NCBI GenBank assembly: GCA_026390795.1
Contig: JAPLFG010000004.1
Span: 1-64,000, forward strand
Direction of reading: 5' to 3'
Source of the DNA: Ignavibacteriales bacterium
Lineage (GTDB): Bacteria > Bacteroidota > Ignavibacteria > Ignavibacteriales > Melioribacteraceae
Length of the DNA stretch: 64,000 nt
The position numbers and the translations under genes were made by a program. How positions within the stretch are numbered: the first letter of the stretch is position 1; every line of letters begins with the position of its first letter. Under the pieces are notes generated by a model, which saw only the letters and a program-made list of their open reading frames with translations, searched no databases and had not been told where the DNA came from. Positions 26,815 through 48,397 of the stretch are shown one piece after another.

Positions 26815-28326
26815 TCAGTTACTTAAATCTTGAGAATCATTTTCAGCGTTTGATGTTTGGCTTTTGTCAACCTTGTCCCGTTCAGTTTTTTTTATATGAT
26901 TACCAAGAACTTTACCTCCTGACTTCGCAATGGAAAAACGCGCAATTAATGCACCAAAGAAGATCACTGTAATAAATACTTCAATAATGTTCGCCAGAGA
27001 AACTATAAATTTTATAAAACCATCCTTTGGTTTTATATCCCCATAACCTGTTGTCGTAATCGTATAAATCATGAAATACATGTAATCCAATAGTTCCATA
27101 TTATTATTCATAGCAATGGATGAAATTTGAATTTCAGATTGATGCTGATTTATTGGTTGTATAATTATATTAACAAGTCTCCTTAAAGGATCCGCCATTT
27201 TTAAGTTTTTATGATTTGTTTCATTGGGCATTGGAACAAGAGCCCATTCAATATTAAAATTATTTGAAATATTTCTTTTTTTATTTTGAATTGCTTTTTT
27301 CTCACGGGCTAATAGAGAATCCGCTAATATCATTTGAACTTGTACCGTTCGTGCTTGAGATAATTCATAATTAGATGTGAATTTATTATTGAGTGTATCT
27401 TTTCCTTGTAAATCAGTCTGCCCAATTAGTTTGATTCTTATTCTTTTTTGTGAATTTCTCAAAGAATCAGAATCAATCTTATCCAGGATAAACTTTATGC
27501 TACTATAATTTAAGGCTTTCATTCGATCATTCAATAAACCATTATTACTATTTCCATAATTTTTTAAATATCCTCTCCAGTCTAATACGGCCTGAACATA
27601 GGGTGTTTGACTAGGAGAACTCTCAACAATTGCTGAACCACTATTAAAATATAAAAGAGTACTTTCTTCATTCTCAATTTTATTCTCAAATACTTTATTT
27701 GGGAATAAATTTTCAGAGTATATGCTTCGGTGATTATGTGCTCCATCCCAGAAAGCAATTGCTAATGCTAGCAGGCTACAAATACATAGGAATAGACCAA
27801 GGAAATGTACTAGATTATTAAATGTTTGCTGTTCTAAACCATGAGAAAATATAGAGTTTGGGTCCTCTTTTGTGCCGAGTAAATGACTACAAATCGTACC
27901 GATATCCAACACGAGCGTAATTGAAAAAGTAAGTGCTAATACAGCAAGCATATTCAAATACGTACACGGAATTATAATAAACTGAACACATACAAGATAC
28001 ATGATATATAATATACACACCATGAGTATTGATCGAGATGCACTAAATAAATAATACCCTTTAATCTCTCGATCCCCCACCCTTCTTATAACATACAACT
28101 GTAAGATCGGACCTATAATGAATAAAAGGGTAGCATATGCTGAATTACTTATCCATGCCGAATAATCTCCATTCGGTTCTAGCAGGTCTTTTCTAATTGA
28201 GGGCATAAAAGCACTAAATGCAAAACCAATAAGAAATATAACTATCGTAATAATTTCAATTCTAGCTTGCTTATTAGAATATTCTTTGTAATCCTCTAAA
28301 TCATTATTCGTCAATTTATATTTCAT
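26815..28326 (-). CDS. Potassium-channel-like protein with OmpA-like domain
   Basis: A 503-residue membrane protein, last gene of the large operon. Four or five hydrophobic helices fill residues 20-190. Residues about 220-395 form a soluble domain with OmpA-like features (LLYFNSGSAIV, then IRIKLIGQTDLQGKD and NYELSQARTVQVQ). A pore follows with the potassium selectivity filter TTTGYGD (in YTITTTGYGDIKPKDG, about residue 425), then a last helix and a charged tail. OmpA-like domains usually bind peptidoglycan. This could couple wall contact to ion flow. The gene lies about 180 bases after the ZorB-like gene, so it may be a separate unit. Confidence 0.7.
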   Translation of the reverse strand: MKYKLTNNDLEDYKEYSNKQARIEIITIVIFLIGFAFSAFMPSIRKDLLEPNGDYSAWISNSAYATLLFIIGPILQLYVIRRVGDREIKGYYLFSASRSILMVCILYIMYLVCVQFIIIPCTYLNMLAVLALTFSITLVLDIGTICSHLLGTKEDPNSIFSHGLEQQTFNNLVHFLGLFLCICSLLALAIAFWDGAHNHRSIYSENLFPNKVFENKIENEESTLLYFNSGSAIVESSPSQTPYVQAVLDWRGYLKNYGNSNNGLLNDRMKALNYSSIKFILDKIDSDSLRNSQKRIRIKLIGQTDLQGKDTLNNKFTSNYELSQARTVQVQMILADSLLAREKKAIQNKKRNISNNFNIEWALVPMPNETNHKNLKMADPLRRLVNIIIQPINQHQSEIQISSIAMNNNMELLDYMYFMIYTITTTGYGDIKPKDGFIKFIVSLANIIEVFITVIFFGALIARFSIAKSGGKVLGNHIKKTERDKVDKSQTSNAENDSQDLSN

Positions 28327-28508
28327 TTAAAACCCTCCTTTATTTCTTGCTTTTTCCTTTCTCTTTTTAGAACTATTATTTTACATAAATTATATTTTAT
28401 AAAAATGTATCAAAATATATTTAAATTAGAATAAACTATTAAATACTTTTATTTCAAAAGTGCACTCGATAGTATTTTCATTTATTCACTTTCAATCGTC
28501 TTTGAATA

Positions 28509-29177
28509 TTATTGAAATTTTTCTTCTACGCTTTTTCCTATTTTATATTCAATAAATATTTGTATCCTCTTGCTTGCTTCTTCATCCTCTTCACCCAGCT
28601 CAGATTTTTTTGTTACATAATCGTACTGTGCATAACCTGCAATTGACAAGAGCCGGGATGGTTTTGATGATTCTTCTTTTTTTGCTTCGCGTACCCCTTC
28701 TTTGTCGAAAATTTCAATAATTTTTATGGCCCTATTTGCAGAAAGATACCAATTTTTAAATACGCTGCCATTATACGGCAAATCATTCGTGTGTCCTTCC
28801 ACCACAACACGTGATATCTTGTTTTCAGCAACGTATTTTTTAATCGCTTGGCCAACTTTTCGGATAAAATCTTCACTTTTGTCACTAGCAAAAAGATCTT
28901 TACCTGATTGAAATAGAAACGCATCTTTAAATACAATAGTATGGTTTGTTCCAATTAATATATCGCGATCAATAATTGTTGAATCTCTACCGAGACTTTG
29001 TTTTATACTTCGCATTAATCCATCTCTATTTTTTTGAATCTCTTCCACCGGGAAGCTAAGATAATTTTTAATAACTAAAACAAACATGAAGAGTATTAGA
29101 ATAAACATCACCATGATAGTTAGGTCCGACAAACTAGGCCAAAAATTAAAATCCACCTCTTCTGGTTTCTTTTTCAT
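28509..29177 (-). CDS. ZorB/MotB-like proton-channel subunit with OmpA-like domain
   Basis: A 222-residue protein with one N-terminal helix (residues 17-40). FWPSLSDLTIMVMF holds Asp18 in the position of the ion-carrying Asp of MotB and ZorB. A C-terminal OmpA/MotB peptidoglycan-binding domain has VVVEGHTNDLPY, NWYLSANRAIKIIEIF and RIQIFIEYK. ZorB pairs with ZorA to form the ion-driven part of Zorya anti-phage systems. It lies 23 bases after the ZorA-like gene, the usual order. ZorC, ZorD and ZorE are not seen here. Confidence 0.85.
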   Translation of the reverse strand: MKKKPEEVDFNFWPSLSDLTIMVMFILILFMFVLVIKNYLSFPVEEIQKNRDGLMRSIKQSLGRDSTIIDRDILIGTNHTIVFKDAFLFQSGKDLFASDKSEDFIRKVGQAIKKYVAENKISRVVVEGHTNDLPYNGSVFKNWYLSANRAIKIIEIFDKEGVREAKKEESSKPSRLLSIAGYAQYDYVTKKSELGEEDEEASKRIQIFIEYKIGKSVEEKFQ

Positions 29178-29200
29178 AATTAGATCAACCTCAAACCAAT

Positions 29201-30886
29201 TTACTTTTTAGAGAAAAAATTAAATGGAAAAAATAATGCTTTATAGTTTTTAGTCTTGGTTGGTTTCTTTTTAGCATTCAGAGCTGAGTCTATTTCCACA
29301 CTTGGTATTTTTCTGATGCTGGATTGCACTGCCTGCTTGAGTTCACCTGCCATATTATCTATTTTAGTCTGCACTGAAGAATTCAACTGTGATATAGAAT
29401 TAGTTATTTGTGAGATATTTGTTATTAACATATTTTTATTTTCTGTTGAAAAAGCATTTTGAGCAGAAGTAAATTGTTCTGTAATAGAAAGAAGAGTCGT
29501 ATTTAATTGCTTTGTTAATTCGCCTATGTGTTCGTATTGTTTCTCTGAGTGTTCATCAAGAGTTTGTCTCAAATATTTTATCATATTGATCGTCTCATCA
29601 TTAATCTTTTTAATTCCTGACAGAAAACCATCATTTCCTTCGTTCATCATTAATGACAATGTTTTATTAATTTCATTAATACTGTTTTGGACTGAATCTT
29701 TGATATCTTTTAAAGTAATGGAAGTCATTTTTACAATTTCAGGAATGATTTTTTGCAATTCGACATTTGTGTTCCTTATTTCAAGAGTAAAACTGTCGGT
29801 TCTCGTTATTAATGAATCAGTCTTCTCAGAATAACTTGATAATTGGTTCTTCAGCTCCTGGCTTTCAAAACTTTGAGTTTTTAGTTGTCCAATTGTTTCA
29901 TCAACACTTCTTATCATCTGGTCATACTTTGAAGTAAAATCTGAAATAGAGGTTTTCATCTCTATGGAGGATTCGGAGAATTTATTAAATACTTCTTCCA
30001 CATTCCGTAATATTGAAAGCATCTCAGACTGAATATTCCCACTTTGCCCTAGTGGTGTTACAACCTCCCGAATTACTTTTGTTAAAGAGGCTACAGAATC
30101 AAATAGATTTTGATATAATTCACGTGTATTTTCATTTGTTTTCACAGTTTGTTGAACTACACCTGTTAGAGTGGTCGAAATATCAGTCATGATGTGTTTA
30201 ATGTCATCAAGATCATCTCTTGATTTGACAAAAGAATATGCTGGAATAATTTTGCCAACTATCAATCTTTCAAAACTTTCTTCTAACGAATTTTTATGCT
30301 TTTCATAAAAGAACAAAATAAATAATACTAGTAAAGTTGAAATAATTCCCAGTAATGTCGTGGAAAAAGCTGTCGACATACCTGAGAGAAAAGAGATCAT
30401 TGAATTGGTTATAGCCTCAACATCTTTTTGAACTAAAAGTTCTCGCATCGGAAGAATAGATTGACTAAGACCAACAATAGTACCTAATAAGCCAAGTAAG
30501 ACAAGAATTCCAGACACTTTTTTTGCAGACATAGCTCCTGGAAGCGGAATAGTACTTACAACACTGTCCACTATATCAATCGATAGCTCTTTTCCTGACA
30601 AACGTATTTTATGAAATTCATACAATCTTTTGTATAATATTGAACCTTCTTCCATAACGGTTAAATATGAGGCAAAATTTACAATAGGTACTTTACCAAT
30701 ACCTTCATCTACTGAACAAACTAGTTTAGTAAATTCTTTTTTTGAATTTAATATTTTTATATATAGTTGAATTACTCTAATAAACGCATATGAAGCTATT
30801 ATTATTATAAATATGTTAATAAATATTGAAGTGGGACTTGCGAAAAAAAATTGTAAAATGAACTTTGTAATACTTGCGATTATCAT
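29201..30886 (-). CDS. ZorA/MotA-like proton-channel subunit with long coiled-coil tail
   Basis: A 561-residue MotA/TolQ/ExbB-type protein. One helix lies near the N-terminus (about 18-40) and two more at about 124-143 (VSGILVLLGLLGTIVGL) and 163-190, the classic stator core. A cytoplasmic coiled coil of more than 250 residues follows, as in ZorA, where the tail projects into the cell and passes the signal inward. ATG at 30884-30886 was chosen because it lies 16 bases after the preceding gene; a longer frame overlapping that gene by 92 bases was rejected. With the ZorB-like protein it should form the motor of the operon. Confidence 0.85.
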   Translation of the reverse strand: MIIASITKFILQFFFASPTSIFINIFIIIIASYAFIRVIQLYIKILNSKKEFTKLVCSVDEGIGKVPIVNFASYLTVMEEGSILYKRLYEFHKIRLSGKELSIDIVDSVVSTIPLPGAMSAKKVSGILVLLGLLGTIVGLSQSILPMRELLVQKDVEAITNSMISFLSGMSTAFSTTLLGIISTLLVLFILFFYEKHKNSLEESFERLIVGKIIPAYSFVKSRDDLDDIKHIMTDISTTLTGVVQQTVKTNENTRELYQNLFDSVASLTKVIREVVTPLGQSGNIQSEMLSILRNVEEVFNKFSESSIEMKTSISDFTSKYDQMIRSVDETIGQLKTQSFESQELKNQLSSYSEKTDSLITRTDSFTLEIRNTNVELQKIIPEIVKMTSITLKDIKDSVQNSINEINKTLSLMMNEGNDGFLSGIKKINDETINMIKYLRQTLDEHSEKQYEHIGELTKQLNTTLLSITEQFTSAQNAFSTENKNMLITNISQITNSISQLNSSVQTKIDNMAGELKQAVQSSIRKIPSVEIDSALNAKKKPTKTKNYKALFFPFNFFSKK

Positions 30887-30902
30887 ATTTGTCTCAGCCC
30901 GT

Positions 30903-32948
30903 TTAGATATTAATTTTACAAGGAGTAGAATTATTATAATAGATTGAAATGTATTTCTCTTTAGAATTTGATAGACTTTTATTTTCGAAAACAACCCAAC
31001 TTACAGCCTCATCTTCTTTGATATAACATGGAAATCTTGACCCCGTATTCATAAAGTCTACTATGACAAACGGATCACTCGATATGAGATTGTATATAAC
31101 TATGGGATCCTTCTTTTTGTTTGTACACTTAATCTCACTGCTAGTATAATTATTCATATCTGATTTTTTTGATCTATTGTAAATGAATTCTGCCTCGCCT
31201 ATGACGAAGCGTCCAAAAACTATCAATGATTCGTAATATGTTGAGTACTTTGTAACAATTTTGAATTGCAAGTGGACCTTGAAATCACCTGCCAGTTTAA
31301 TATTTCTACCCTCAAATGTGAATACAATTTTACCTGGCTCTAATTCAGTGTATTGAATGATTTGGTCATATATAGACTTAATTCCTAAATCCTCTTGGAT
31401 CAATTCAGATTTAATTTCAGTTCCATTTATTAAAAGCTCTTTGAGTTTCACTTTAATACTGGAAATCCCCTCATCATTATTACCAGTAAACAATATTTCC
31501 TTCTGATACCGACTACCATAATGAAGAATAACAGGACCAACGACATCTGGTAATGAGCGATTTATTCTACTCATATTGTGATTAAGTGAAACGCCCACAA
31601 TTGTGTGAATTCCACGGGATGTTGATGAAATTAGTTGAAAGCACTTGGGTTCTTCTAAAAGACTAGTGAATAGAGAGGTTTTTATTTCAAGTGGATATTC
31701 ACTAGAGCGAATAGAAGGACCATTTTTATCTATTATAAAACCAGAATGTTTTATTTCACTATTTGTTACAGTTATTTTTGTTTTTCCATTCCCAGCTAAT
31801 CTGACAGGTAAATCAATTTTTAGAAAAGGAAGAGGTTTTGATAATTCTTCAGTCACATCAATACATATATTTTCACTTATTAATTCCAGCGCTTCAGGCA
31901 AATATTCCACCTTCAATCTAACTGAAACTTCTTTACCTTTGATTTTAAGGAGTAAGATTCCATTAGTAGTTCCAAAAAGAATTTTTTCTCTAAGTACGTT
32001 TATAATTATATCAACTGATTCTTTGCTTGTATCATCTTGCTCAATTATACACCAATCAGGGCTAGAAAGCACAAAAGTTTTACCTTTTTTAACATTGCTA
32101 ATTCTATAAATACAATCAGGGGTTAGGTCTGTTATTTTTTGAGATAGCGTAAAATCATATGTAAAAAACTGCATTGAAGAACCATAACTATTGATAAACC
32201 TTCCGAAATTATCCTCGAAATAAAAAATATCCTCACCTGCGTCAAGCTGAATTTCAGTAGAGAAAAGACTTTCACCTTCAGCATATAAAAATTTTTTATC
32301 GCGCTTTTTATTTAATTTCAATTCGATATAGTTACTATCGATATACTCAGACTTGCAATACAATTTTCTTGTATTTGGACTAATTTTAAATGAAAGTAAA
32401 TTTCCACTCGGTTGCGATTCATCGAGCAACTTTGAAGTACTTGTTTTTACTACTTTCACAGAGTACTTTTTTATTTCGGAATGTTTTAAAACCATTCCAT
32501 CTAGATCAACACTAAAATAAAGCTGGGTCTTGAGCGGTTGACAGTCTTGAACTGTGAAATGTAGTATTAAGATATAAAAACCAGCCGGGGTGTTCTCTAA
32601 GTTTAAGTGCAAATAAAATACACCATCGCTATAAGGAGCAATTTGAAAACTTTTAAATTCCCCTACGATATCTTTATTAATTGATTCAAGAAGTGGATAA
32701 TTTGAATCAAGTATTCTTATGGCAGAGACTTTCCTAATACTATCTGAAAAATTATTGAACTTTATTTTTATAGTATGCGATTCCGGAGACAATGCTCCGA
32801 GATGTAAAATATCAGATTCGATTTCCAATGCCCCGTTATTATCACTAGTGATTTCAGAATCAATTGATAATTCTGGAATATCTCCGAACGGGTTTTCATA
32901 TAATAGATTATGAACACGCGTAATTTCGTCAAATGAAAATACTTTCAT
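30903..32948 (-). CDS. Large beta-rich protein of unknown function
   Basis: A 681-residue protein I do not recognise. It has no signal peptide or membrane helix. It is made of beta-rich stretches with alternating hydrophobic residues (HTIKIKFNNFSDSIRKVSAI, AGFYILILHF, ITVTNSEIKHSGF), resembling serial Ig-like or CARDB-like modules. Similar beta modules occur in the Hsp70 fusion and the 72-residue zinc-ribbon protein of the same operon. The gene overlaps the protease stop by four bases (ATGA). It may be a scaffold. Confidence 0.6.
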   Translation of the reverse strand: MKVFSFDEITRVHNLLYENPFGDIPELSIDSEITSDNNGALEIESDILHLGALSPESHTIKIKFNNFSDSIRKVSAIRILDSNYPLLESINKDIVGEFKSFQIAPYSDGVFYLHLNLENTPAGFYILILHFTVQDCQPLKTQLYFSVDLDGMVLKHSEIKKYSVKVVKTSTSKLLDESQPSGNLLSFKISPNTRKLYCKSEYIDSNYIELKLNKKRDKKFLYAEGESLFSTEIQLDAGEDIFYFEDNFGRFINSYGSSMQFFTYDFTLSQKITDLTPDCIYRISNVKKGKTFVLSSPDWCIIEQDDTSKESVDIIINVLREKILFGTTNGILLLKIKGKEVSVRLKVEYLPEALELISENICIDVTEELSKPLPFLKIDLPVRLAGNGKTKITVTNSEIKHSGFIIDKNGPSIRSSEYPLEIKTSLFTSLLEEPKCFQLISSTSRGIHTIVGVSLNHNMSRINRSLPDVVGPVILHYGSRYQKEILFTGNNDEGISSIKVKLKELLINGTEIKSELIQEDLGIKSIYDQIIQYTELEPGKIVFTFEGRNIKLAGDFKVHLQFKIVTKYSTYYESLIVFGRFVIGEAEFIYNRSKKSDMNNYTSSEIKCTNKKKDPIVIYNLISSDPFVIVDFMNTGSRFPCYIKEDEAVSWVVFENKSLSNSKEKYISIYYNNSTPCKINI

Positions 32949-33826
32949 AAGTCATTCATAAAATTTTTACTCACAATAGTAATGGGTCTGGCAAAACCTA
33001 TATTCTCCGCTTCCATTATTTTGGCAGTCACGACACCAAGTACTTCACCAGAATTTCTATCTAGTAACGGTCCTCCGGAATTACCTTTATTTACTGCAGC
33101 ACTTACCTGGTACCAAACAAGATTTCCGCTATTATCTTTTCTAATAGAGCTGATTAATCCATCTGTTAAAGTCATCTCGCTTCCTAACTGGGATCCAAGT
33201 GGGAAACCCATCACAAGAATTGATCTGCCAATTTTAACATTGTCTGACAGATTTATTTTGAGAGAAGGAACTCCATCTGGGATTTCGCAACTTAAAGTAG
33301 CTATATCCAATTCAGGATTGGACTTTTTTACTTGTGCAAATCTTATTGAACCATCATAAAACGTAAGAAGAATATCATCTCCATTCGAAATGACGTGATT
33401 ATTTGTAAAAATTGTAGAATAATTCCCGGCAACGAAGCCCGTTCCAGATTTAGTAGAATGAAAAGTGTTGGTAGTTCGGTCCATATTTCCAACCTCAATG
33501 TAAACGACACTTTTAGCCCATGAGGCCAATTCTCCTTCTGGAAGATTCCTAGCTGGACGAGATTCTATAGGTGGATTTTGTTTTTGTTGTTCTCTACTAG
33601 GATATTGATGGCTTTGTTCAGAATTACGTATCTTTCTAGATTTTCCTACCCCTATAAGCAAAATAAATAAAATAAATAAAAAAAACCCGGACAAGACGAC
33701 TAGAAATCTGATTTCTCTTTTTTTCTTCGTTGCATAAGGAATTTTATGGAATGGCCTCTCCTTCTCCAGTGAATTGCTGCCCGATCGCGTATTTTTATGC
33801 GGGTCAAATAGTGGTGGTTTTGTCAT
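32945..33826 (-). CDS. Membrane-anchored HtrA-like serine protease
   Basis: A 293-residue trypsin-fold protease. One helix at residues 41-60 follows a basic segment (YATKKKREIR), giving an inner-membrane anchor with the protease domain likely outside. The triad is visible: His144 in FTNNHVIS, Asp174 in ELDIATL, Ser250 in NKGNSGGPLLD. There is no PDZ domain after it, unlike DegP. It overlaps the preceding gene by 23 bases. In this operon it could process an envelope partner. Confidence 0.88.
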   Translation of the reverse strand: MTKPPLFDPHKNTRSGSNSLEKERPFHKIPYATKKKREIRFLVVLSGFFLFILFILLIGVGKSRKIRNSEQSHQYPSREQQKQNPPIESRPARNLPEGELASWAKSVVYIEVGNMDRTTNTFHSTKSGTGFVAGNYSTIFTNNHVISNGDDILLTFYDGSIRFAQVKKSNPELDIATLSCEIPDGVPSLKINLSDNVKIGRSILVMGFPLGSQLGSEMTLTDGLISSIRKDNSGNLVWYQVSAAVNKGNSGGPLLDRNSGEVLGVVTAKIMEAENIGFARPITIVSKNFMNDL

Positions 33827-40900: not shown

Positions 40901-41485
40901 TTCTCGAAATCCTTTTGTTACTGTTTTATAAGTTAAACTTATATTCTCGATAAGATTACTGAATCCTGGAAATGCTAATCTATATCTGGATTCGTAAAAG
41001 AAAATGGATTCGGGACAAATGAAGGAATGATGGAATCCATTTTTATTTAAAGAAGTAAGATCTCCAAATATATCCTCAAATATTTTTTGAATATCTGGAT
41101 CAGACATGATTGTATTTGAGCAATATTTGTCTTCATCCCACCCGATTTTATTGAAAAGCGGCCTTTCAAACGATCCTTTATTATAAATATGAATTTGATT
41201 TATTTCATACGGTTTACGTGAAGTATTAGGTCGCTGTTCAGAAAAAATAGGAAGAATTAAATCACTATCTCTCATAGTGTTAGCTGAGTTTTTCAAATAA
41301 TTGCCATATTTGTCGAAATTCAACAAAAACGGAGAATCTTTCTCAATTAGTGAATACTGTAGGTCATAAATTTTATTTTTTTCAATATCCTTAACCTCAT
41401 AAAAATCACCCTCTATATTTTGGAAAAGAACTTTGGTGATTTCATACTTTACAAATAATATATCGGATACTTTTAGAGAATGCAT
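37922..41485 (-). CDS. Pseudokinase-Ig-Hsp70 fusion protein
   Basis: A 1187-residue protein. Residues 1-295 have the C-lobe of a protein kinase (APE at 202-204, ADVWSLGILL at 216-225), but HRD is HSF (153-155) and DFG is FPG (172-174), so it should be a pseudokinase. Residues about 310-610 are beta modules with Ig-like strands. Residues 618-1130 are an Hsp70 ATPase: IDFGTSNT (623-630), FIDEATAGALHF, VYDFGGGTTDIV (802-813) and LLGRSSNL (995-1002). There is no typical Hsp70 substrate-binding domain or lid. ATP cycling is probably served by the GrpE-like protein of the operon. Confidence 0.85.
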   Translation of the reverse strand: MHSLKVSDILFVKYEITKVLFQNIEGDFYEVKDIEKNKIYDLQYSLIEKDSPFLLNFDKYGNYLKNSANTMRDSDLILPIFSEQRPNTSRKPYEINQIHIYNKGSFERPLFNKIGWDEDKYCSNTIMSDPDIQKIFEDIFGDLTSLNKNGFHHSFICPESIFFYESRYRLAFPGFSNLIENISLTYKTVTKGFRELNIFPLAPELIKNKMNLSEKADVWSLGILLSILKTGKLPFNFSTQAGYLSAIKAGELTLKIEESMGNSYKTLLSGALKLDPYQRFSLNDFSEKLKTIFNPVVQSNNIEITGVSLNNENEIKRWFENVFQSEHVELQNHGDIVRGRLKISPFLLPSQTQNKVLTISVNSPSIQGTKSKERKEITIYPSPQIRIVNTSYLMKKYDSAFQGSSYHYEGRIDFRIIQSVVRISKINIDIEGIPNPIDEIEFNGLNTLLTPNPGGEPYYIYFKVVDADIKINEVSRLILNFSLHNHSSIEHTHPIIPTFPAKLDILFDIMSQLRLHCGELKTFTLELRNSGGNPCRITNIYLRYSRDLIRLFFKPTSRWISNNQQIEFQITVDGTSVRENDASQGEFVIEYDEQIQSKILSNKCNHKFNLVFKKLDAESVIAIDFGTSNTCAAYIDADGEYNLVNWSYNIGAEEDYKSLPSFLYYSDKKGVDEIYYGQEAKTSFLQGRPNTFHSVKRFIGEHKSEPVFIHGHPRFVTYEEMTFDYLSKLFNDISIYNERRFTKYIFTHPTNITRAQELAYKDIINRLHINDITAKIKFIDEATAGALHFINQRAESDSYYLVYDFGGGTTDIVLAFFECYNIKTPGGFTKHKKLTPLFATGYNYGGDTINELIIEEIVNIIYEKEAKLIPAIPMRERGSLPGNWSDELRSRVSGNYAKLWDKAESFKKSIDLIKDSDTLTISLIYCLTNSSTRDQYTTYLVEPNPSSVELDYTSLCDLRKIVFKKVGERLDKIIKEVLSYSNKTIENSKPINILLLGRSSNLKLVQHLFEYYVNNTSFPQDQYDGFYPSDSPLFFNSNSTVEKPDELKQVVALGAIQMENQDIETCNDRFYNTIIAWGIEIILPGRVKIDDKNPSKIVSILQNGTHNEYACYVSTKNSLKFYHDKSYEFREQSPRLRSSLGYINIKIDKKYIDLEGYLCVYVNSQNQVRSVIIDEDWRILQYEDIQR

Positions 41486-41489: not shown

Positions 41490-41708
41490 TCACTCTATAC
41501 TTATTTGTGGCCTGTCAACCGTTATTGGAAGAATTCCTGTATTAATAATTGTGTAGATAAGTTCAATTTCATTTTCAGAATCGGCATAATTAATTTGCTC
41601 TTCATCATCAAAATGAATTGAAAATCCTTTTGTTGGTGAACCACACCAGCCGCAATATTTTTCGTCATCTAAAATTTCCCATCCGCTTTTACATAAAATG
41701 CATACCAT
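41490..41708 (-). CDS. Small zinc-ribbon protein with Ig-like strand
   Basis: A 72-residue protein. Cys3-xx-Cys6 and Cys19-xx-Cys22 make a zinc ribbon. The rest (IELIYTIINTGILPITVDRP) is like the opening strands of an Ig-like domain. It ends four bases before the pseudokinase-Hsp70 gene. It may be a detached N-terminal module or an adaptor. Confidence 0.65.
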   Translation of the reverse strand: MVCILCKSGWEILDDEKYCGWCGSPTKGFSIHFDDEEQINYADSENEIELIYTIINTGILPITVDRPQISIE

Positions 41709-41727: not shown

Positions 41728-44661
41728 TTAATCCGCTGAGTACTTTTTATTCATTAGCGTAGTGTAGAATAGTTTTTCTTTTTCATATTCTGGGGAAATC
41801 TTAGAGAAATTACCACTTTCTAAAAATTCATTTAAATGATTATTCATTCTTTCCTTAAATCCTTTCTTATCCATATTTGCAAAACAACCATCAAATTTTT
41901 CTCTAAAATGATCAAAAACATATTTGTTATTAACAAGTTTTTGGATGAAATCCTGTTCGTTAGATTCGATGAAATTTTCCTCTGTATTTTCATCGAACTC
42001 ATCTACATAAGAAAAGACATAGTAAATTTGGTTTGTCCTTGGATCTTTATTCTTGCTTGTATAAATAATATCCTCAAAAAGATCCTTTGAGACCTTGAAC
42101 CAAGAATCAGTTTTCATTTCGTTTGTTACAAGAAATCTCTCAATATTAAATCTTTCGGGGTTTTTATCGATATGATTTCCGTACTCATGCCCAATTTGAT
42201 ATTGAGCTTTCATACTATTAAAGGCTTTAAACTCGCTTATAGCAATACCAGCTTCTTCTTTGTAAATATAAAGTAGATGATTAAGATCTATTGGTAATTC
42301 AATTGATATCTTATTTTCTGGTAAGTATTCATTAATTTCAGTTTTTGCTTGTTCTCTTGAATTTTGGCTACCGCCACCTATGATCGTTGGATTTTGACCG
42401 ACGGGATATGGAACCTGTTGATAGTTAAGATCAGGTTCAAACATTGGTTCTGCATTCCTGGCAAAATTTATTAAAGTAGTTCTATCTACTCTACTAGCTA
42501 CATCAAAATTGTTAATTGATGAATTTCTGAGAATATTAGTTTGGAGAGATCCCGCTAAATTATCGAAGCAATATTCTTCCGTTTGTTGAGGGTCTAAAAT
42601 ATTTTTTATTAAATCAGGTAATTCAGTAGAGAATTGTGTTACATCAATTTCGGAAGAATATTTTTCAATATCATTTTCTAAAAGACCACTCTGTGAAATG
42701 ATTTTTAACGAAGTGTATTCATGCACTTGACTCAGATCATTGAATCTTTGATTTGCTAAATCTTTTATTTTAATAACTCGCTTGTGATTTTCATTTATGA
42801 TTTTATTAAGTATGGAATCAAGTGAATCCAAGTTATTTTTAATTATTTGACTAATGAAATTTTTAATCAGATTTTCTTCAGCTTCGTTAAATATGAAATT
42901 TATTCCATCTGAAATTCTTTTGTAATGTTGCTTAAGAACTTCATCACGTAAAAATACCATTGTAGTAGTAATTCTATTCTGCTCAACTTCGACAGCATCA
43001 AAATTTGGGTCCAATAATGAAAAATCAATATCTTTAGTCGACAGATTGGGAGCTTTCCGAGATAATTCAGTCAATTGATTTTTAACTAAATTTTGTAAAT
43101 TAACTAAATCAGCTAATGAGATATTATTAGGACCTCCATCAATATTGATTGAAGACAATATGATTTTTATTTGCCTTTCAAAAGTATCTTTTAGCTTTAG
43201 CTTAAATATGTTAGTACCTCGGTTAATATTTAAGGATAATTGTTTGTAGTAATAACCTTGAATCTTAAAACGGGAGACATAAGGATCTTCGGTTGGTGTT
43301 TGAATTAACTCGCTTTTAAGAAACGCTACGTTTGGGTTATTAATCTCTAAATCAGTAATTTTTTGATTGACATATGCTCTCCAATCAGAACCAATCGTTG
43401 TCTGAACACCAGATTCGTTAATGAAACCCACAATTTCAGATGTAATTTCTTGTGTCAACTGACTTACTATTTGATTAGCCATGTTTTGAACTTGTTGATT
43501 ATTGGTTGTACTTTGATTCCCAAGCCAATTAGTGCAAAGTTTATTTGAAATAAATTTTGCGGCAGCTGCACCAGAAATTCTACTTTTCGGGAACCATAAT
43601 GCAACAGCACCAAACGATGAAAAAGATTTCAAATATCTTGGTCTTGTTTCTACTTGTTTTTTTAAAAAGGTCCAATTACATCTCAAGCCACCTGTATTCA
43701 TATATTGGCCACCAACTGTATCGAAGAACATCGAAATACCAATCATTTTATGCAAACTTTCAAAATCAACACTACCATCAGTGCGTACAATGGCTGCAGA
43801 CGTTCCTTTTTTATTCTTAGTTGATATATAATGAACATGTTCAAAAGGAGGGTTTATTTCATTAAGCGAATTCATTGAGTTTGGGAAGAAATAATTAAAC
43901 ACTGTTCCTGTTTGCCTGTAAAAATCATTCTCAACCATACCAGCATATGCATTTGCTGAAAGTCTAGAATTATTTGGTTTCGATGTCTCAGTATCATCCA
44001 TAAATGTAAAAATACCAAAGACTTTAACCAAGGGGTTTTGAGTTCTAATAAAATAGGCTAAGTCTAACATAGTCCCTGAACATGTTCCACCATGTAAAGT
44101 TCCAACTAAATAGACATTAATGTTATTATTTACATAATTGGCTGACTCTTGATTTATACCTTTTTGCTTTAAATATTCCTTTATTTTTGCCTGTGTCGAG
44201 TCTTTATTTTCATTGTTGTGTAATACATTAATCTCTTCCTGAATACTTTTGGTAACATTGTCCCAATTAAGCCACAGCGCTAATCTGCCAAGCATTCTTT
44301 TGTTCTGCATTCCACTCTGAAGATCAGTATTACCCAATTTAGCTAATTCAGGCAGAAACCATTCAGCAAGACCAGGCCGGAAAAAATCTTTTCTAGAAGG
44401 ATCTAGCATCATTGGGACTTGCTTATATAATGTATCTGGGATACTAATCTCAATAACTTTTACTTTTTCATAAATATTTGAAAACTGATTATTAGGTAAT
44501 CTAAATGTCTCCCCATTTTTGTGAGAGCTAATATTGATGAATCTAACTGAAGGCATTCCTGCAGATAGAAATTCCTCATACATTAATTCACGAGCACTAT
44601 TCATAATTTCAAGACCTGAAGATCCAACTCCAATTATTAATGTGGGTGTAATGTTTATCAT
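41728..44661 (-). CDS. Tubulin-like GTPase family protein (Tubulin_2)
   Basis: A 977-residue protein. TLIIGVGSSGLEIM (7-20) and GGTCSGTMLDL (191-201) are the GTP-binding loops of the tubulin/FtsZ fold; the second is the tubulin signature G-G-x-x-S-G-T. Pfam's tubulin-like family has this layout with a long, mostly helical C-terminal part, as here (about 400-977). No membrane segment is seen. It follows a small membrane protein gene and may polymerise or serve as a nucleotide-gated scaffold. AGGAG lies before its ATG. Confidence 0.82.
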   Translation of the reverse strand: MINITPTLIIGVGSSGLEIMNSARELMYEEFLSAGMPSVRFINISSHKNGETFRLPNNQFSNIYEKVKVIEISIPDTLYKQVPMMLDPSRKDFFRPGLAEWFLPELAKLGNTDLQSGMQNKRMLGRLALWLNWDNVTKSIQEEINVLHNNENKDSTQAKIKEYLKQKGINQESANYVNNNINVYLVGTLHGGTCSGTMLDLAYFIRTQNPLVKVFGIFTFMDDTETSKPNNSRLSANAYAGMVENDFYRQTGTVFNYFFPNSMNSLNEINPPFEHVHYISTKNKKGTSAAIVRTDGSVDFESLHKMIGISMFFDTVGGQYMNTGGLRCNWTFLKKQVETRPRYLKSFSSFGAVALWFPKSRISGAAAAKFISNKLCTNWLGNQSTTNNQQVQNMANQIVSQLTQEITSEIVGFINESGVQTTIGSDWRAYVNQKITDLEINNPNVAFLKSELIQTPTEDPYVSRFKIQGYYYKQLSLNINRGTNIFKLKLKDTFERQIKIILSSINIDGGPNNISLADLVNLQNLVKNQLTELSRKAPNLSTKDIDFSLLDPNFDAVEVEQNRITTTMVFLRDEVLKQHYKRISDGINFIFNEAEENLIKNFISQIIKNNLDSLDSILNKIINENHKRVIKIKDLANQRFNDLSQVHEYTSLKIISQSGLLENDIEKYSSEIDVTQFSTELPDLIKNILDPQQTEEYCFDNLAGSLQTNILRNSSINNFDVASRVDRTTLINFARNAEPMFEPDLNYQQVPYPVGQNPTIIGGGSQNSREQAKTEINEYLPENKISIELPIDLNHLLYIYKEEAGIAISEFKAFNSMKAQYQIGHEYGNHIDKNPERFNIERFLVTNEMKTDSWFKVSKDLFEDIIYTSKNKDPRTNQIYYVFSYVDEFDENTEENFIESNEQDFIQKLVNNKYVFDHFREKFDGCFANMDKKGFKERMNNHLNEFLESGNFSKISPEYEKEKLFYTTLMNKKYSAD

Positions 44662-44669
44662 AACAACTC

Positions 44670-45005
44670 CTATGCTATTGCTGGTAAATTATTTTTTTTA
44701 GAAAAAAAGATGAAAGCCATTACTATATCAAACAAAAACAATACTACCAAAGATATCATTTGTATCAAAAGCAAAGTATAATCGTAATACAAGAAGAGGA
44801 ACACTAGTAAAAAAACGATAAACATTAGATGAACTAGTGATGCTAAGAAAAACCCTGTCAGAACTGTTTCTTCCAACCTCGTTGAACTAGTATTAGATTT
44901 TGCATAAATAAGCGCAACTAAATACCAGAAAACAATATAAGATACAGCAAGTGTCAAGAACCAATAAAGAAGATCTTGAAATATTGAATCCATTATTTCT
45001 GCCAT
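44670..45005 (-). CDS. Small membrane protein, three helices
   Basis: A 111-residue protein with hydrophobic helices at about 10-32, 48-72 and 76-98. It ends with Lys-Lys-Asn, suggesting an inside C-terminus. AGGAG precedes the ATG. No family is recognised. It lies eight bases before the tubulin-like gene and 17 bases after the vWA gene and may anchor one of them. Confidence 0.65.
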   Translation of the reverse strand: MAEIMDSIFQDLLYWFLTLAVSYIVFWYLVALIYAKSNTSSTRLEETVLTGFFLASLVHLMFIVFLLVFLFLYYDYTLLLIQMISLVVLFLFDIVMAFIFFSKKNNLPAIA

Positions 45006-45022: not shown

Positions 45023-46510
45023 TTATTTCCGGTTTGAACTAAAAAGTGTTTTTGATTTGGAGGGCCCACTCTTAGTGCCCAGTAAAATTTTCATTCTAAT
45101 CGGGTTTTTATCTTTGTCATAAATTTCAAAGTCTTTACCCATCTCAATATTTTTTGTCTGGGCTTTTTCTTCTATTAACTCGAAACCCTTGGGATTAAGA
45201 ATCTTTACTGAGAAAAGAGGTGCTTGGACATCGAAATATTTGTTCTTTGATGCTTCGAGACGAGATTTCCCAAATTTTATTTCTTCACCATATTTTATTT
45301 TAAAAATTTGATTTCTGCTATTTGTTAAGTTTATAAATGTGGCCTGAATATTTCTATTCTGTGCAATCTTAAATAGAAGAAATAGAATAGCTACCGCTAG
45401 CATTAGTAAAATGATTATTATCCATGATTTAGAAGACGTTTTGGGTGTAACAACTTGTATTGATTCTTTTAATAATTGCAACTTAATTTTAGGATAAATA
45501 GTTTTTGTAACATCTTGAAGATTTGGGAATCCATTGTAAATGTATTGGGCTTTAATATCTATAAATCCACCTTTGCACAAAGCCGCTACTGTTGTAGTAT
45601 CCAAATCCTTTAAAATTATTTTATTGAAAAACCAAGGTAGGATCACATTTCTCATTACTTGCTGAGTTACAATCTCGTTTTTATTATTATACACTCTCAA
45701 CCAAAGTGTTAAATCTTTCACTAAGCCATCTGCCAGTCCCTTTTTTGTTGAAATTCGGGAATTGTTAGTGTTTACATAAACGTTGCTGTTCTCTTTAGAA
45801 TTGGAAAAAATTATTGTATCCTTTTTTTCTGATATTAACTCAAGAATGTCTCCAATAGTTGATTTAATCTTAGCGATTTGAAGTCTAATTGTTGATTTGG
45901 TGATTTTGTCATTGAATAATTCAATATCTTCTGCATAAGCTATGTGATACTTACTCATTAGATCCCTAATTTCGTGAGACAAGGTATGACCACCACCGAC
46001 TTGATCATGAATATCGTCTGATAAATAAATCCAAATTGGATCGTATGAGACACTAATACTTTCTAAAAATTTTCGATATGCCTCTTCAACATTGGTATTA
46101 TTCTGATTAAAATCGGATTTCCTTGAGGGCAATTTTCCTGTCAATGTAATTGGATTATTTCCAATCTCAATATCTTCAAAAACAGTTTTTAAATTATCTC
46201 CAATTAGAAAAAGACTTGCCTTATCACCTTTTGAAACTAAAGGAACAGGTAAAACAGGTGCATTTTGAAAGTCAGGAAATAAAAATTTTTTGTAATTTGA
46301 AGGAGAGTAGGAACTGTTAAAAAGTATATCTGCTAATAAAGTGTTCCATTCAGTAATCAATTGATCTGTAACTCTTCCATTCTTCAACATACTTTTTGAA
46401 ATATCATAGGTTATAATAATATTCCTAGAAGGAGTTGATTGACAGAAACCATTCTGAAGATTTAGAAACAAAAGAAAAGTGAAAAATAAAATTGCGATTT
46501 TTTTCGACAT
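45023..46510 (-). CDS. Exported vWA-like protein with membrane anchor
   Basis: A 495-residue protein. Residues 1-23 are a signal peptide. The vWA start IIITYDISKSM has the metal-site pattern Asp36-x-Ser38-x-Ser40. The vWA-like part extends to about 200 (IWIYLSDDIHDQ). After a beta region comes a membrane helix near 365-387 (IIIILLMLAVAILFLLF), followed by a cytoplasmic beta domain of about 100 residues that could be FHA-like. vWA domains bind protein partners through a metal. The layout points to outside sensing or binding with inward signalling. Confidence 0.75.
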   Translation of the reverse strand: MSKKIAILFFTFLLFLNLQNGFCQSTPSRNIIITYDISKSMLKNGRVTDQLITEWNTLLADILFNSSYSPSNYKKFLFPDFQNAPVLPVPLVSKGDKASLFLIGDNLKTVFEDIEIGNNPITLTGKLPSRKSDFNQNNTNVEEAYRKFLESISVSYDPIWIYLSDDIHDQVGGGHTLSHEIRDLMSKYHIAYAEDIELFNDKITKSTIRLQIAKIKSTIGDILELISEKKDTIIFSNSKENSNVYVNTNNSRISTKKGLADGLVKDLTLWLRVYNNKNEIVTQQVMRNVILPWFFNKIILKDLDTTTVAALCKGGFIDIKAQYIYNGFPNLQDVTKTIYPKIKLQLLKESIQVVTPKTSSKSWIIIILLMLAVAILFLLFKIAQNRNIQATFINLTNSRNQIFKIKYGEEIKFGKSRLEASKNKYFDVQAPLFSVKILNPKGFELIEEKAQTKNIEMGKDFEIYDKDKNPIRMKILLGTKSGPSKSKTLFSSNRK

Positions 46511-46521: not shown

Positions 46522-47739
46522 TTAAATATCACGAACTAAAATTATTTTCTTGTGTTCAATAAATGCTAATAAGCCATTTAAATAAAAAATGTTCGATAAC
46601 GGATTTACTACTTCGCTCATGACAAAATTTACTGGGATTTCTGAAATAAATTGATTCGATGCCATGTTTAGTCGACGTATAGCTCTATCATTCCTACTTA
46701 CTGAATAAATAATATTGTTTTTAACAAAATTAAACTCCGTGTTCAATTCATAGCTTAAAGTTATTAATTCAGAATTCCCATCTTTTAGTATTTTGCAAAA
46801 AGATCCTTTCTCTATACCGTTTTTAAAGAGAAAACCTCTCTCGGAATAAATAGGTCGTCCACATGGAATTACAATATTATTTTCTTTGATGTTGCGATTT
46901 GGAAGATCTGTTCGAGAGGTTAAATCGAAGATTTTCATTTTGACTTGTTTATCAGCATTATACCCAAATATATATATTTTATTATCCATGACTACGGGAA
47001 TTGCAATATCTATTAGATCGGATTTAATTATATGAGTAAAACTATCTTCACCTCCTAGAATACTTTTTAATGATGCTTCAAATACGTTTCCAGCCGAATC
47101 GCTAATATAGATTGTCTCTTTATTAAAATTATAAAATATTGAGTTCCATTTTCTATTTGATTGTAATCTGACGAGGTTAATTTGATTGGAACTTTCTTCC
47201 TTAAAACGAGATAGATCAATAATAAAAAGTTTATTTTCAACTATAAATAGAAGAAATCTCTTATCTTTTTCAAAAACGATCGTGGGTGAGATTGCGACAC
47301 TTGATATTTGGCCTGCCGTATGATATATATATACATTAGATATTATATTTTCATTTCTATCAACCCCAAACCTTAAAAGAATATTTGAACAGATTGTATT
47401 TAGAAAGAGTCCATCAAAAACTGGGGTAGAAGATTTGGATATTTCACTTGGTAAGAAATCTGTTCGTCCTAATTCATAATTTCCTTTTCCGCTATCAAAT
47501 AACCTATAATAGTTCTGATTGCTATCAGGAATACATAGAATTGAATTAAATCCAGATAAACCAGGAAGTACTCTAAGATATTTCTTATTCTGAGTGACTT
47601 GAATCGAGTGGATATCATTTACATTTTCAAAAATATTGAGAAAACCTTCAATAGATTTGATTGCTTGACCGCAGTTTGGGCAAAATCTTGTATTCGCTGG
47701 TAATATCTGATTACATTCTAAACATTTTTTTGATACCAT
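46522..47739 (-). CDS. Zinc-ribbon protein with beta-propeller-like body
   Basis: A 405-residue protein. Cys6-xx-Cys9 and Cys20-xx-Cys23 form a zinc ribbon (CLECNQILPANTRFCPNCG). The remaining 380 residues repeat strand patterns such as NVYIYHTAGQISSVAIS, ETIYISDSAGNVFEASL and NIIYSVSRNDRAIRRL, fitting a degenerate beta-propeller. No membrane segment is seen. It lies 11 bases before the vWA gene. Likely a protein-protein adaptor. Confidence 0.6.
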   Translation of the reverse strand: MVSKKCLECNQILPANTRFCPNCGQAIKSIEGFLNIFENVNDIHSIQVTQNKKYLRVLPGLSGFNSILCIPDSNQNYYRLFDSGKGNYELGRTDFLPSEISKSSTPVFDGLFLNTICSNILLRFGVDRNENIISNVYIYHTAGQISSVAISPTIVFEKDKRFLLFIVENKLFIIDLSRFKEESSNQINLVRLQSNRKWNSIFYNFNKETIYISDSAGNVFEASLKSILGGEDSFTHIIKSDLIDIAIPVVMDNKIYIFGYNADKQVKMKIFDLTSRTDLPNRNIKENNIVIPCGRPIYSERGFLFKNGIEKGSFCKILKDGNSELITLSYELNTEFNFVKNNIIYSVSRNDRAIRRLNMASNQFISEIPVNFVMSEVVNPLSNIFYLNGLLAFIEHKKIILVRDI

Positions 47740-48049
47740 TAAAGCCCCTATTAGTGCACATGAGAAATATTACTTCGGTAAAATTATTCTTTGAAAATAT
47801 TGATTACTCCGAATACAAAAAACCTTTATAATCGCAGTAATTTTATTTCAGAATAATAATTGTGCTAATTTTATTTAATAGTAATCTTAAATTTTTATTT
47901 TTTCCATAAATTTTGATTCAGTAATTAAAATAATGAAAGTTCTTTGTATTAGCGAGAATTTTATTAATATGTTTAATCTTAATAATAATATATCTAGTCC
48001 TTTTTGGATCTAGTATAACTGTTGGATCTCTTTGGAGGGACAAATCGTA
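47740..48049. other. Intergenic region within the operon start
   Basis: A 310-base AT-rich gap between the first and second genes of the large operon. I see no gene or clear terminator. It probably holds the main operon promoter or leader, but no site could be fixed. Confidence 0.4.
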
Positions 48050-48397
48050 TTACCTATTCCTAATAGTTTGACCAACACCAGTATCTTTTGTTGTATATCG
48101 ATTACATCCACATTTACCACATACTTTTGGTGAATTTCCTAGATATTGTCCACAGTCTGAACAATAATAATTATTAATAGTGCGATAAAATGTTGCTTTT
48201 GGCAGAAATAATTGAGCGATCCAAGCTATAATTATTGAGAGTAACACAGTTTGGATAATACCAAAAAAGTTATCTGCTCCAGCCTTAAAAATGAACCAAG
48301 CGATTAAGCCAACACCAATAAAAATTGCTACATCAATCATTTGACTTTGAGTAGTAAGACCACTAAACCCTTTTCGTGTAAAATATTGTTTTGCCAT
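48050..48397 (-). CDS. Two-helix membrane protein with C-terminal zinc ribbon
   Basis: A 115-residue protein with helices at about 27-46 (VAIFIGVGLIAWFIFKAG) and 49-70 (IIQTVLLSIIIAWIAQLFL). A C-terminal zinc ribbon follows (YYCSDCGQYLG and VCGKCGCNRY). AAAAGGAG precedes the ATG. It may begin the operon, although a 310-base gap separates it from the next gene. Confidence 0.65.
   Translation of the reverse strand: MAKQYFTRKGFSGLTTQSQMIDVAIFIGVGLIAWFIFKAGADNFFGIIQTVLLSIIIAWIAQLFLPKATFYRTINNYYCSDCGQYLGNSPKVCGKCGCNRYTTKDTGVGQTIRNR

What the first reader, a model, noticed from the sequence alone, without database searches (positions are those of the whole stretch)
26815..48397. Sixteen-gene operon joining a ZorAB-like motor, Hsp70 pseudokinase fusion, tubulin-like GTPase, vWA protein and protease
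All genes lie on one strand with overlaps or short gaps. The set has a ZorA/ZorB-like ion channel pair without ZorC, ZorD or ZorE. It also has a tubulin-like GTPase, an exported vWA protein, a pseudokinase-Ig-Hsp70 chain, a GrpE-like factor, a membrane HtrA-like protease, three zinc-ribbon proteins and a K+ channel. Zorya uses ZorAB to sense an envelope disturbance and pass it inward; here the inward part seems replaced by a chaperone/GTPase machine. I know of no named system with this whole content. A role in defence or envelope stress is inference.
Basis: partly seen in the sequence, partly recalled or inferred. Interest (0 to 1): 0.92.

Follow-up and report, generated by a model that had tools for sequence, protein, structure and literature searches.

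The report
Motor-linked bacterial tubulin–Hsp70 operon
A mobile set of about fifteen bacterial genes joins a cell-wall-anchored membrane motor of the kind used in Zorya phage defence to a tubulin-like GTPase and an Hsp70-type ATPase; the tubulin part was described in 2010, but its link to such a motor appears unreported and could show how it works.

Summary
The operon is real. Fourteen of its 16 genes follow each other within 23 nt. It encodes an FtsZl1/Tubulin_2 GTPase, a ZorA/ZorB-like motor pair, a pseudokinase–Hsp70 chain, a membrane HtrA-like protease and a K+ channel. The vWA label rests on a MIDAS motif only; GrpE was not confirmed.

It is a single system. In Desulfobacter latus, apparently another phylum, a cluster has the same order; five of 11 paired proteins match strongly (tubulin, zinc ribbon, pseudokinase–Hsp70, ZorA, ZorB), the rest by position. 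ZorAB-like pairs also lie beside FtsZl1 in four Deinococcus plasmids and, with a weaker ZorA, in a Chthonomonadaceae MAG and genome G652.

It is not Zorya: no ZorC–G protein was found. The kind is in print: Makarova and Koonin (2010) described FtsZl1 operons with vWA, kinase and OmpA proteins. New here is that the 'OmpA' partner is half of a ZorAB-like motor, with an Hsp70 arm. That gives a physical path from cell wall to cytoplasm.

The operon sits in a defence island (type IIG RM, SoFic, DruE-like, bSEFIR). Most likely it is an envelope-sensing defence machine. Defence and mechanism are inference.

The parts
48050..48397 (-). g1: 115-aa protein with two TM segments and CxxC pairs near its C-terminus; membership uncertain
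   Evidence: 310-nt gap to g2; TM; no counterpart seen in D. latus
46522..47739 (-). g2: zinc-ribbon protein, remainder perhaps a beta-propeller (by eye)
   Evidence: DZR 1.1e-4, below cut-off; same slot in D. latus and G995; Z 2.7 against D. latus; profile of D. latus and G995 ranks it first among window ORFs but E = 0.056, next ORF 0.095
45023..46510 (-). g3: exported/membrane vWA-like protein with MIDAS motif DISKS
   Evidence: no Pfam hit; MIDAS also in D. latus and G995; ranks first with E = 0.0034 but an unrelated ORF scores 0.0059; TM 364-382
44670..45005 (-). g4: small membrane protein directly upstream of the tubulin
   Evidence: a small protein stands in the same slot in D. latus, 4 Deinococcus loci, G408 and G543a, not in L034 or, as far as seen, G995; not significant by sequence against D. 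latus (Z 0.4)
41728..44661 (-). g5: FtsZl1 / Tubulin_2 GTPase
   Evidence: Tubulin_2 3e-36; D. latus Z 124; tree
41490..41708 (-). g6: 72-aa zinc-ribbon protein
   Evidence: D. latus counterpart also 72 aa, Z 10.7
37922..41485 (-). g7: pseudokinase, linker region, Hsp70 nucleotide-binding domain
   Evidence: Pfam; hhalign to DnaK residues 2-371, probability 99; HRD Asp missing in 4 of 4; D. latus Z 61
37068..37925 (-). g8: unknown, 285 aa
   Evidence: positional match only to D. latus 353-aa protein (Z 0.2); model pLDDT 36, unusable
36104..37057 (-). g9: N-terminal signal-like segment, one TM, then a probably coiled-coil part
   Evidence: same TM pattern in D. latus 520-aa protein, sequence not significant (Z -0.3)
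35376..36107 (-). g10: 243 aa, GrpE-like C-terminus proposed but unconfirmed
   Evidence: Pfam GrpE E = 0.21; hhalign probability 1.7%
33804..35366 (-). g11: probably coiled-coil protein, 520 aa (by eye)
   Evidence: weak match to D. latus 675-aa protein (Z 2.8)
32945..33826 (-). g12: membrane-anchored HtrA/DegS-type serine protease, no room for a PDZ domain; absent from the D. latus cluster
   Evidence: Trypsin_2 1.2e-25 to residue 265 of 293; triad motifs; TM 42-60
30903..32948 (-). g13: unknown, 681 aa
   Evidence: positional match only to D. latus 604-aa protein (Z 0.4)
29201..30889 (-). g14: ZorA-like motor subunit with long C-terminal coiled-coil tail (ATG start preferred over TTG 30994, inference)
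   Evidence: PADLOC ZorA1 1.2e-8; three TM segments, last ends at 228 of 597; D. latus Z 20
28509..29177 (-). g15: ZorB-like motor subunit with conserved Asp18 and OmpA-like peptidoglycan-binding domain
   Evidence: PADLOC ZorB1 2.8e-24; PDB 8VVN 1.1e-10; Asp invariant in 6 of 6; D. latus Z 30
26815..28326 (-). g16: K+ channel with an OmpA-like segment between its TM groups; membership uncertain
   Evidence: Ion_trans_2 2.4e-9; OmpA-like 278-341 E 2.4e-5, far under the model's cut-off; 182-nt gap; not in D. latus
23710..24735 (+). tyrosine integrase to the left of the operon
   Evidence: Phage_integrase 5.8e-34
52234..53307 (-). tyrosine integrase to the right of the operon
   Evidence: Phage_integrase 2e-38
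22226..22296 (.). copy of a 71-nt stretch that includes the end of tRNA-Val (att-like)
   Evidence: 90% match to 17513-17583; the 20-nt core occurs only at these two places in the window

Best explanation
It is a mobile transenvelope FtsZl1 system with a ZorAB-type motor as its input. ZorB-like protein binds peptidoglycan and, with ZorA-like protein, forms an ion-driven motor in the inner membrane. An exported vWA-like protein and small membrane proteins sit with it. When the wall is disturbed, most likely by phage entry, ion flow turns or shifts the long ZorA tail in the cytoplasm. The tail engages an NTP-driven assembly made of the FtsZl1 GTPase and the pseudokinase–Hsp70 chain. That assembly sets a threshold and releases output through lineage-specific parts, here the membrane protease and the K+ channel, which would stop growth or depolarise the cell. 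Shown: gene content, conserved order, key motifs, defence-island setting. Inferred: 5:2 assembly, wall sensing, tail-to-GTPase coupling, outputs and defence.
For: One system: D. latus has the same order, with 5 of 11 paired proteins strongly significant against 100 shuffles each (tubulin Z 124, pseudokinase–Hsp70 61, ZorB 30, ZorA 20, zinc ribbon 10.7). G995 has zinc ribbon–vWA–tubulin–pseudokinase and then its contig ends, before any Hsp70 motif; G670, cut at the other end, has tubulin then pseudokinase–Hsp70.
ZorAB beside FtsZl1 in 8 of 29 loci on the tree: window, D. latus, 4 Deinococcus plasmids, L034, G652. In L034 and G652 the ZorA is weak (PADLOC ZorA2 1.4e-6; E = 0.0042).
Motor type.
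Defence setting: of 10 chosen proteins on the right side (window and L027) 4 hit PADLOC at 1.4e-47 or better (type IIG/DrmMI 1.7e-225, SoFic 4.5e-112, DruE 8e-99, bSEFIR 1.4e-47), against 1 of 10 chosen on the left side, at 4e-7.
Mobility: integrases, tRNA-derived repeat, low GC; tubulin not found in the other 163 genomes searched in the order at E up to 1e-10.
In Zorya, ZorAB is thought to sense the wall and recruit effectors (PMC11890865, abstract and Discussion read).
Against: No nuclease or other classical killing effector is in the operon. GrpE and most small partners are unconfirmed; 4 of 11 D. latus pairs are not significant and 2 are marginal, and the control of off-diagonal pairs reached Z 4.1 and 4.6 twice (coiled-coil proteins), above the marginal pairs. 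Protease and K+ channel are missing from the D. latus cluster, so they cannot be the general output. Of 22 loci on the tree with readable context, 14 have no ZorAB, including 4 in the window's own tubulin clade; clustering of ZorAB in that clade has p = 0.012 counting all rows but 0.11 once near-copies are merged. The ZorB profile is broad. Island neighbourhood says nothing certain about function. Both structure predictions failed (pLDDT 36 and 33).
Confidence: 0.5

Rival explanations
1. A membrane-remodelling or envelope-maintenance machine, as Makarova and Koonin proposed for FtsZl1 operons: the motor supplies force across the envelope, FtsZl1 polymerises at the membrane, protease and Hsp70 handle misfolded envelope proteins. 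No phage link.
For: Published reading of the family (PMC2875224, text parts 1-3 of 5 read). Membrane protease, K+ channel and Hsp70 suit envelope stress.
Against: Sporadic and mobile: 1 of 164 genomes searched in the order, low GC, integrases, defence-gene neighbours. A housekeeping envelope machine should be less patchy.
Confidence: 0.25
2. A GTPase-centred conflict system of the GAP1-N2 kind (Kaur et al. 2020) in which the motor replaces the TRAFAC GTPase/GAP1 module.
For: Similar cast: tubulin, vWA, Hsp70, kinase, zinc ribbons, membrane parts (PMC7159879 section 29 read).
Against: No P-loop GTPase family and no GAP1 among the 15 of 16 proteins scanned with Pfam at E up to 1; 'MotA', 'Zorya' and 'ExbB' do not occur in the paper's main text.
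Confidence: 0.15
3. A divergent Zorya type whose ZorC/D/E role is taken by unrelated proteins.
For: ZorB-like protein nearest to Zorya I and II structures 8VVN and 8VVI; long ZorA tail. Zorya III is a published precedent for swapped partners (PMC8565338, passages seen).
Against: No ZorC, D, E, F or G in any of 16 proteins; ZorB profile is broad, 131 of 247 genomes of the phylum; 8QYD, recalled as a Zorya ZorB, scores below MotB; the conserved centre is FtsZl1.
Confidence: 0.07
4. Two or three unrelated operons lying side by side by chance.
For: End genes g1 and g16 have larger gaps; protease and channel are absent from D. latus.
Against: Collinear core in D. latus and repeated ZorAB–FtsZl1 neighbourhood.
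Confidence: 0.03

Closest known systems
FtsZl1 operons (Makarova and Koonin 2010, PMC2875224)
   Same: FtsZ-like N-terminus with long C-terminal part, neighbouring vWA protein, kinase and OmpA-family protein, many small membrane proteins. That Pfam Tubulin_2 is the FtsZl1 family is my identification, from recall and from the matching architecture and neighbours
   Different: The paper treats OmpA partners as membrane transport or outer-membrane proteins; MotA, ExbB, TolQ, Hsp70 and DnaK do not occur in its main text (its additional files were not seen). Here the OmpA protein is the ZorB half of a ZorAB-like motor and an Hsp70 chain is present. The GTPase named there was not found here.
GAP1-N2 GTPase-centric conflict systems (Kaur et al. 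2020, PMC7159879)
   Same: Tubulin with vWA in one theme; Hsp70 with GrpE in a second; kinase in a third; zinc ribbons and TM parts
   Different: Those themes are described as non-overlapping and are built around a GTPase and GAP1; here tubulin, pseudokinase and Hsp70 are together, with a motor and without those two
Zorya defence systems (types I-III)
   Same: ZorA with long cytoplasmic tail and ZorB with conserved Asp and peptidoglycan-binding domain
   Different: No ZorC, D, E, F or G; FtsZl1–Hsp70 arm instead
Flagellar MotAB and Tol/Exb stators
   Same: MotA/ExbB-type channel protein and MotB-like partner
   Different: Weaker matches (MotB 2.7e-5 against Zorya I ZorB 1.1e-10; no flagellar MotA, ExbB or TolQ NCBIfam model listed for ZorA at E up to 0.1); long ZorA tail

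Membership tests
FtsZl1 (Tubulin_2) operon | FtsZl1/Tubulin_2 protein | tested here: met
   Pfam 3e-36; GTP-binding loop GGTCSGT
FtsZl1 (Tubulin_2) operon | adjacent vWA protein, MIDAS DxSxS | tested here: inconclusive
   MIDAS and slot present; no Pfam hit, hhalign probability under 1%, model unusable
FtsZl1 (Tubulin_2) operon | OmpA-family protein and kinase as frequent partners | tested here: met
   OmpA 1.9e-8, Pkinase 1.9e-13
FtsZl1 (Tubulin_2) operon | diverged P-loop GTPase as frequent partner | tested here: not met
   no P-loop GTPase family in 15 of 16 proteins scanned; described as frequent, not universal
Zorya | ZorA and ZorB, 5:2 motor with ZorA tail | tested here: inconclusive
   sequence features met; profile is broad; stoichiometry not testable
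Zorya | ZorC+ZorD, or ZorE, or ZorF+ZorG | tested here: not met
   none among all 16 proteins at E up to 0.1
Zorya | protects against phage | not testable with these tools
   needs experiment
GAP1-N2 GTPase-centric system | GTPase with zinc ribbons, and GAP1 | tested here: not met
   no Pfam hit in 15 of 16 proteins
GAP1-N2 GTPase-centric system | Hsp70 with GrpE | tested here: inconclusive
   Hsp70 nucleotide-binding domain met; GrpE not confirmed
Flagellar stator | MotA/MotB nearer than ZorA/ZorB | tested here: not met
   (8VVN and 8VVI above MotB, though 8QYD below)

The most novel reading that the evidence does not exclude
A class of immune machine in which a wall-anchored ZorAB-type motor drives, through the ZorA tail, a tubulin-like GTPase and Hsp70 assembly. 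This would answer the question raised in review of the 2010 paper: how a cytoplasmic FtsZ-like protein can work with periplasmic vWA and OmpA partners. A peptidoglycan-tethered K+ channel would be one of its outputs.
Probability: 0.4. Interest if true: 0.9.

Novelty: new variant of a known kind. Interest (0 to 1): 0.72.

Why it matters
As far as my searches show, FtsZl1 has remained an untested branch of the tubulin family since 2010, with partners on the wrong side of the membrane. Finding that its OmpA partner is half of a ZorAB-like motor gives a physical path from cell wall to cytoplasm and makes the function directly testable with point mutants. If it defends against phage, it shows the Zorya motor as a general sensor that can be wired to cytoskeletal and chaperone outputs as well as to nucleases.

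Tried and rejected
GrpE: my by-eye reading of a GrpE-like tail in g10 and in the D. latus 675-aa protein was not borne out (Pfam 0.21; hhalign 1.7% and 12.7%, though these ranked third and first of the 24 profiles tried). g8 as a split Hsp70 substrate domain: by eye only; g8 is not among the top eight against DnaK and its model was unusable. vWA by structure: unusable model; no PDB relative with E under 1. ZorA by PDB profile: the whole-length profile matched coiled coils and similar helical proteins, no stator; the channel part alone matched one chain, 8VVN, at E = 0.49. ZorB profile as proof of Zorya: rejected. My label 'vWA' for the exported protein upstream in Deinococcus is a slot label: those four have no MIDAS. 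Viral contigs: three scans, no relative. Order-wide search: only the window genome (1 of 164). Promoter and terminator scan over 25600-45000: no more sites than shuffles. Literature: eight searches ran. I noticed no paper in their listings that joins ZorAB to a tubulin-like protein, but some listings were capped and the library holds only open-licence PMC papers, so absence there is weak.

Rows dropped before counting: of 34 tubulin loci seen, 29 went into the tree. Four partial proteins (G670, G219, G284, G543b) and the Cylindrospermopsis plasmid (L136) were left out. Two of these, G284 and G543b, and G354 in the tree (counted as cut), have weaker matches to the wide ZorB profile (2.6e-7, 7e-12, 1.2e-4); I did not count them as ZorAB because no sound ZorA stands beside them. 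The ZorB proteins of L034 and G652 were part of that wide profile, so their support comes (9.1e-12 and 3.9e-5). The tree's own labels called L035-L037 'cut'. I relabelled them 'no ZorAB', because downstream sequence is present and the wide profiles found nothing there; one search uses the new labels.
Full report
What is there. Sixteen complete ORFs run on the minus strand from 48397 to 26815. Fourteen of them, g2 to g15, are packed with gaps of -23 to +23 nt; g1 and g16 stand off by 310 and 182 nt. GC in 26-48 kb is 0.27-0.34 against 0.34-0.39 in 1-22 kb, and third-position GC is mostly lower than in either flank (0.16-0.29 against 0.27-0.35).

What the proteins are. Sound: Tubulin_2 (g5, 3e-36); kinase domain plus Hsp70 in one chain (g7), the Hsp70 part matching DnaK residues 2-371 only (hhalign 99), with phosphate motifs intact and the kinase lacking its catalytic Asp in 4 of 4 sequences; membrane serine protease with triad motifs (g12); ZorA-like and ZorB-like proteins (g14, g15); K+ channel with TTTGYGD filter (g16). 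Motif only: vWA (g3, MIDAS DISKS after a signal peptide) and zinc ribbons (g1, g2, g6). Not confirmed: GrpE (g10). Unknown: g4, g8, g9, g11, g13. g16 also carries an OmpA-like stretch between its membrane segments (E 2.4e-5, far below that model's cut-off), which would tie a K+ channel to peptidoglycan if real. PADLOC also gives domain-level hits to other defence proteins: g7 kinase to mad6 (4.6e-13) and PD-T4-6, g12 protease to RT-Protease_XI (7.7e-19); I read these as shared kinase and trypsin domains.

One system or a chance cluster. A scan of GTDB genome contigs with a tubulin alignment returned seven loci. One, Desulfobacter latus, encodes in the same order a zinc-ribbon protein, exported vWA-like protein, small membrane protein, tubulin, 72-aa zinc ribbon, pseudokinase–Hsp70, four further proteins, ZorA and ZorB. 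Against 100 shuffles each, 5 of 11 paired proteins are clearly homologous (tubulin Z 124, pseudokinase–Hsp70 61, ZorB 30, ZorA 20, zinc ribbon 10.7), two are marginal (2.7, 2.6) and four are not (0.4, 0.2, -0.3, 0.4). In the control of mismatched pairs two coiled-coil pairs reached Z 4.1 and 4.6, so the marginal values carry little weight; those proteins match by slot and, in part, TM pattern. Protease and K+ channel are missing there. All 297 genomes drawn for the phylum of D. latus seem to bear handles from G395 on, none from the window phylum's set (one search lists part of them; the next new handle is G692), so the two appear to lie in different phyla (inference). G995 adds zinc ribbon–vWA–tubulin–pseudokinase, cut before any Hsp70 motif; G670 adds tubulin–pseudokinase–Hsp70. 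Of 7 plasmid records that match the tubulin, the 4 from Deinococcus hold ZorAB (alignments) and the 3 from Thermaceae do not. A ZorB next to the tubulin also occurs in a Chthonomonadaceae MAG (L034, 9.1e-12) and in G652 (3.9e-5), each after a membrane coiled-coil protein that is only weakly ZorA-like (1.4e-6; 0.0042).

How widespread. Tubulin_2 itself is uncommon: 9 of 395 genomes of the window's phylum. The window-type tubulin is rarer: 2 of 395 in that phylum, the second only at 7e-6; 1 of 164 in the order; 7 of 297 (three of them only 1e-8 to 1e-10) and 5 of 340 (stricter limit, two shared) around D. latus. On a 29-tubulin tree the window, D. latus and G995 form a supported group (97/92) inside a clade of 15 (98/93). 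In that clade 7 loci have ZorAB, 4 do not, and 4 are cut by contig ends; outside it 1 has it, 10 do not, 3 are cut. The difference has p = 0.012 with all rows and 0.11 after merging near-copies, so association with the clade is suggestive only; the repeated neighbourhood itself is not in doubt.

Motor type. ZorB's nearest solved relatives are Zorya I (8VVN, 1.1e-10) and Zorya II (8VVI, 4e-8), ahead of flagellar MotB (2.7e-5) (the two codes are identified in PMC11890865, passages seen). 8QYD, which I recall as another Zorya ZorB, scores only 0.0033, below MotB and PomB chains. The only PDB match for the ZorA channel part is 8VVN, at E = 0.49. The ion-path Asp of ZorB is invariant in six sequences. 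But the ZorB profile rings in 131 of 247 genomes of the phylum, once more in this genome itself, so it marks a broad class. None of the 16 proteins hits ZorC, D, E, F or G. So: works like ZorAB, is not Zorya.

Setting. A tyrosine integrase lies on either side (23710-24735; 52234-53307). A 71-nt stretch holding the end of tRNA-Val recurs at 22226. To the right lie a type IIG/DrmMI-like enzyme, SoFic, a DruE-like helicase and bSEFIR: 4 of 10 chosen proteins, E 1.4e-47 to 1.7e-225. On the left, 1 of 10 chosen, at 4e-7. I read this as a defence island on a mobile element. Around the Deinococcus loci 4 of 9 chosen proteins hit: a DruE-like helicase and Cas6 near D. radiophilus, PDC-M26A near QL22, and TPR/helicase near D. 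deserti; no control was run there.

What is already known. Makarova and Koonin 2010 (PMC2875224; text parts 1-3 of 5 read) described FtsZl1 operons with vWA, kinase, a GTPase and OmpA-family proteins and proposed membrane remodelling; a reviewer asked how a cytoplasmic FtsZ could work with periplasmic partners. That Pfam Tubulin_2 is FtsZl1 is my identification, not a tool result. Kaur et al. 2020 (PMC7159879; abstract, section 29 and passages seen) described GTPase-centred conflict systems with tubulin–vWA, Hsp70–GrpE and kinase themes. Neither main text contains 'MotA' or 'ExbB'. In the eight literature searches that ran I noticed no paper joining ZorAB and a tubulin-like protein.

How it most likely works. 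By analogy with Zorya, where ZorB binds peptidoglycan, ion flow is needed and the ZorA tail is needed (PMC11890865 abstract and Discussion), the pair here would sense wall disturbance and pass it inward. The inward receiver here is FtsZl1 with the pseudokinase–Hsp70 chain in place of a nuclease. NTP-driven assembly would set a threshold, and variable parts, here protease and K+ channel, would carry the output. Only the parts list, order, motifs and setting are shown; every functional step is inference.

Verdict. Observation confirmed, interpretation partly supported. New variant of a known kind, with a specific and testable new link. The checking round changed statements of fact but none that required new odds.

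Noticed in passing
window 58516-62421, 62637-63740; L027 (G000:C4:64001-80000) 2549-7717, 11664-12680: Defence island beside the operon: type IIG/DrmMI-like enzyme, SoFic, DruE-like helicase, bSEFIR.
   Followed up: partly
window 17513-17583 and 22226-22296: 71-nt direct repeat, 90% alike, covering the end of tRNA-Val; looks like attachment sites, with a thioredoxin/reductase, radical SAM and methyltransferase stretch between.
   Followed up: partly
window 26815-28326: K+ channel with an OmpA-like segment between its membrane helices, a channel perhaps anchored to peptidoglycan (weak match of the wide ZorB profile, E = 0.042).
   Followed up: partly
G000:C3:1772955-1773578: A second ZorB-profile protein elsewhere in the same genome (73 bits).
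   Followed up: no
window 50371-51156: DNA/RNA non-specific endonuclease (Endonuclease_NS 1.5e-50) upstream of the operon on the same strand.
   Followed up: no
window 54565-55971: DnaB-like helicase (1.4e-41) with only distant matches, 26-29% identity, in 10 other genomes of the genus.
   Followed up: no
L003, L028, L029: Thermaceae plasmids carry vWA–tubulin–unknown–BrxL sets near helicase or methyltransferase genes, without ZorAB.
   Followed up: no
L004 5883-18023 and equivalents in L005, L030, L031: Compact seven-gene Deinococcus version; in L004 it ends in a protein annotated DUF2336 and a kinase–SH3–beta-helix protein. An IS lies inside the set in D. radiophilus.
   Followed up: partly
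G543b (L052), G284 (L026), G354 (L023): Further FtsZl1 loci with weaker matches to the wide ZorB profile (7e-12, 2.6e-7, 1.2e-4) and no sound ZorA.
   Followed up: no
L041 / joined D. latus contig, beyond ZorB: Genes resembling phage or recombination functions (AAA ATPase, SSB, UvrD helicase, by eye) follow the cluster.
   Followed up: no
L132 about 3906-5195: In G995 a stretch of short, probably spurious ORFs separates the vWA gene from the tubulin where the small membrane gene would be.
   Followed up: no
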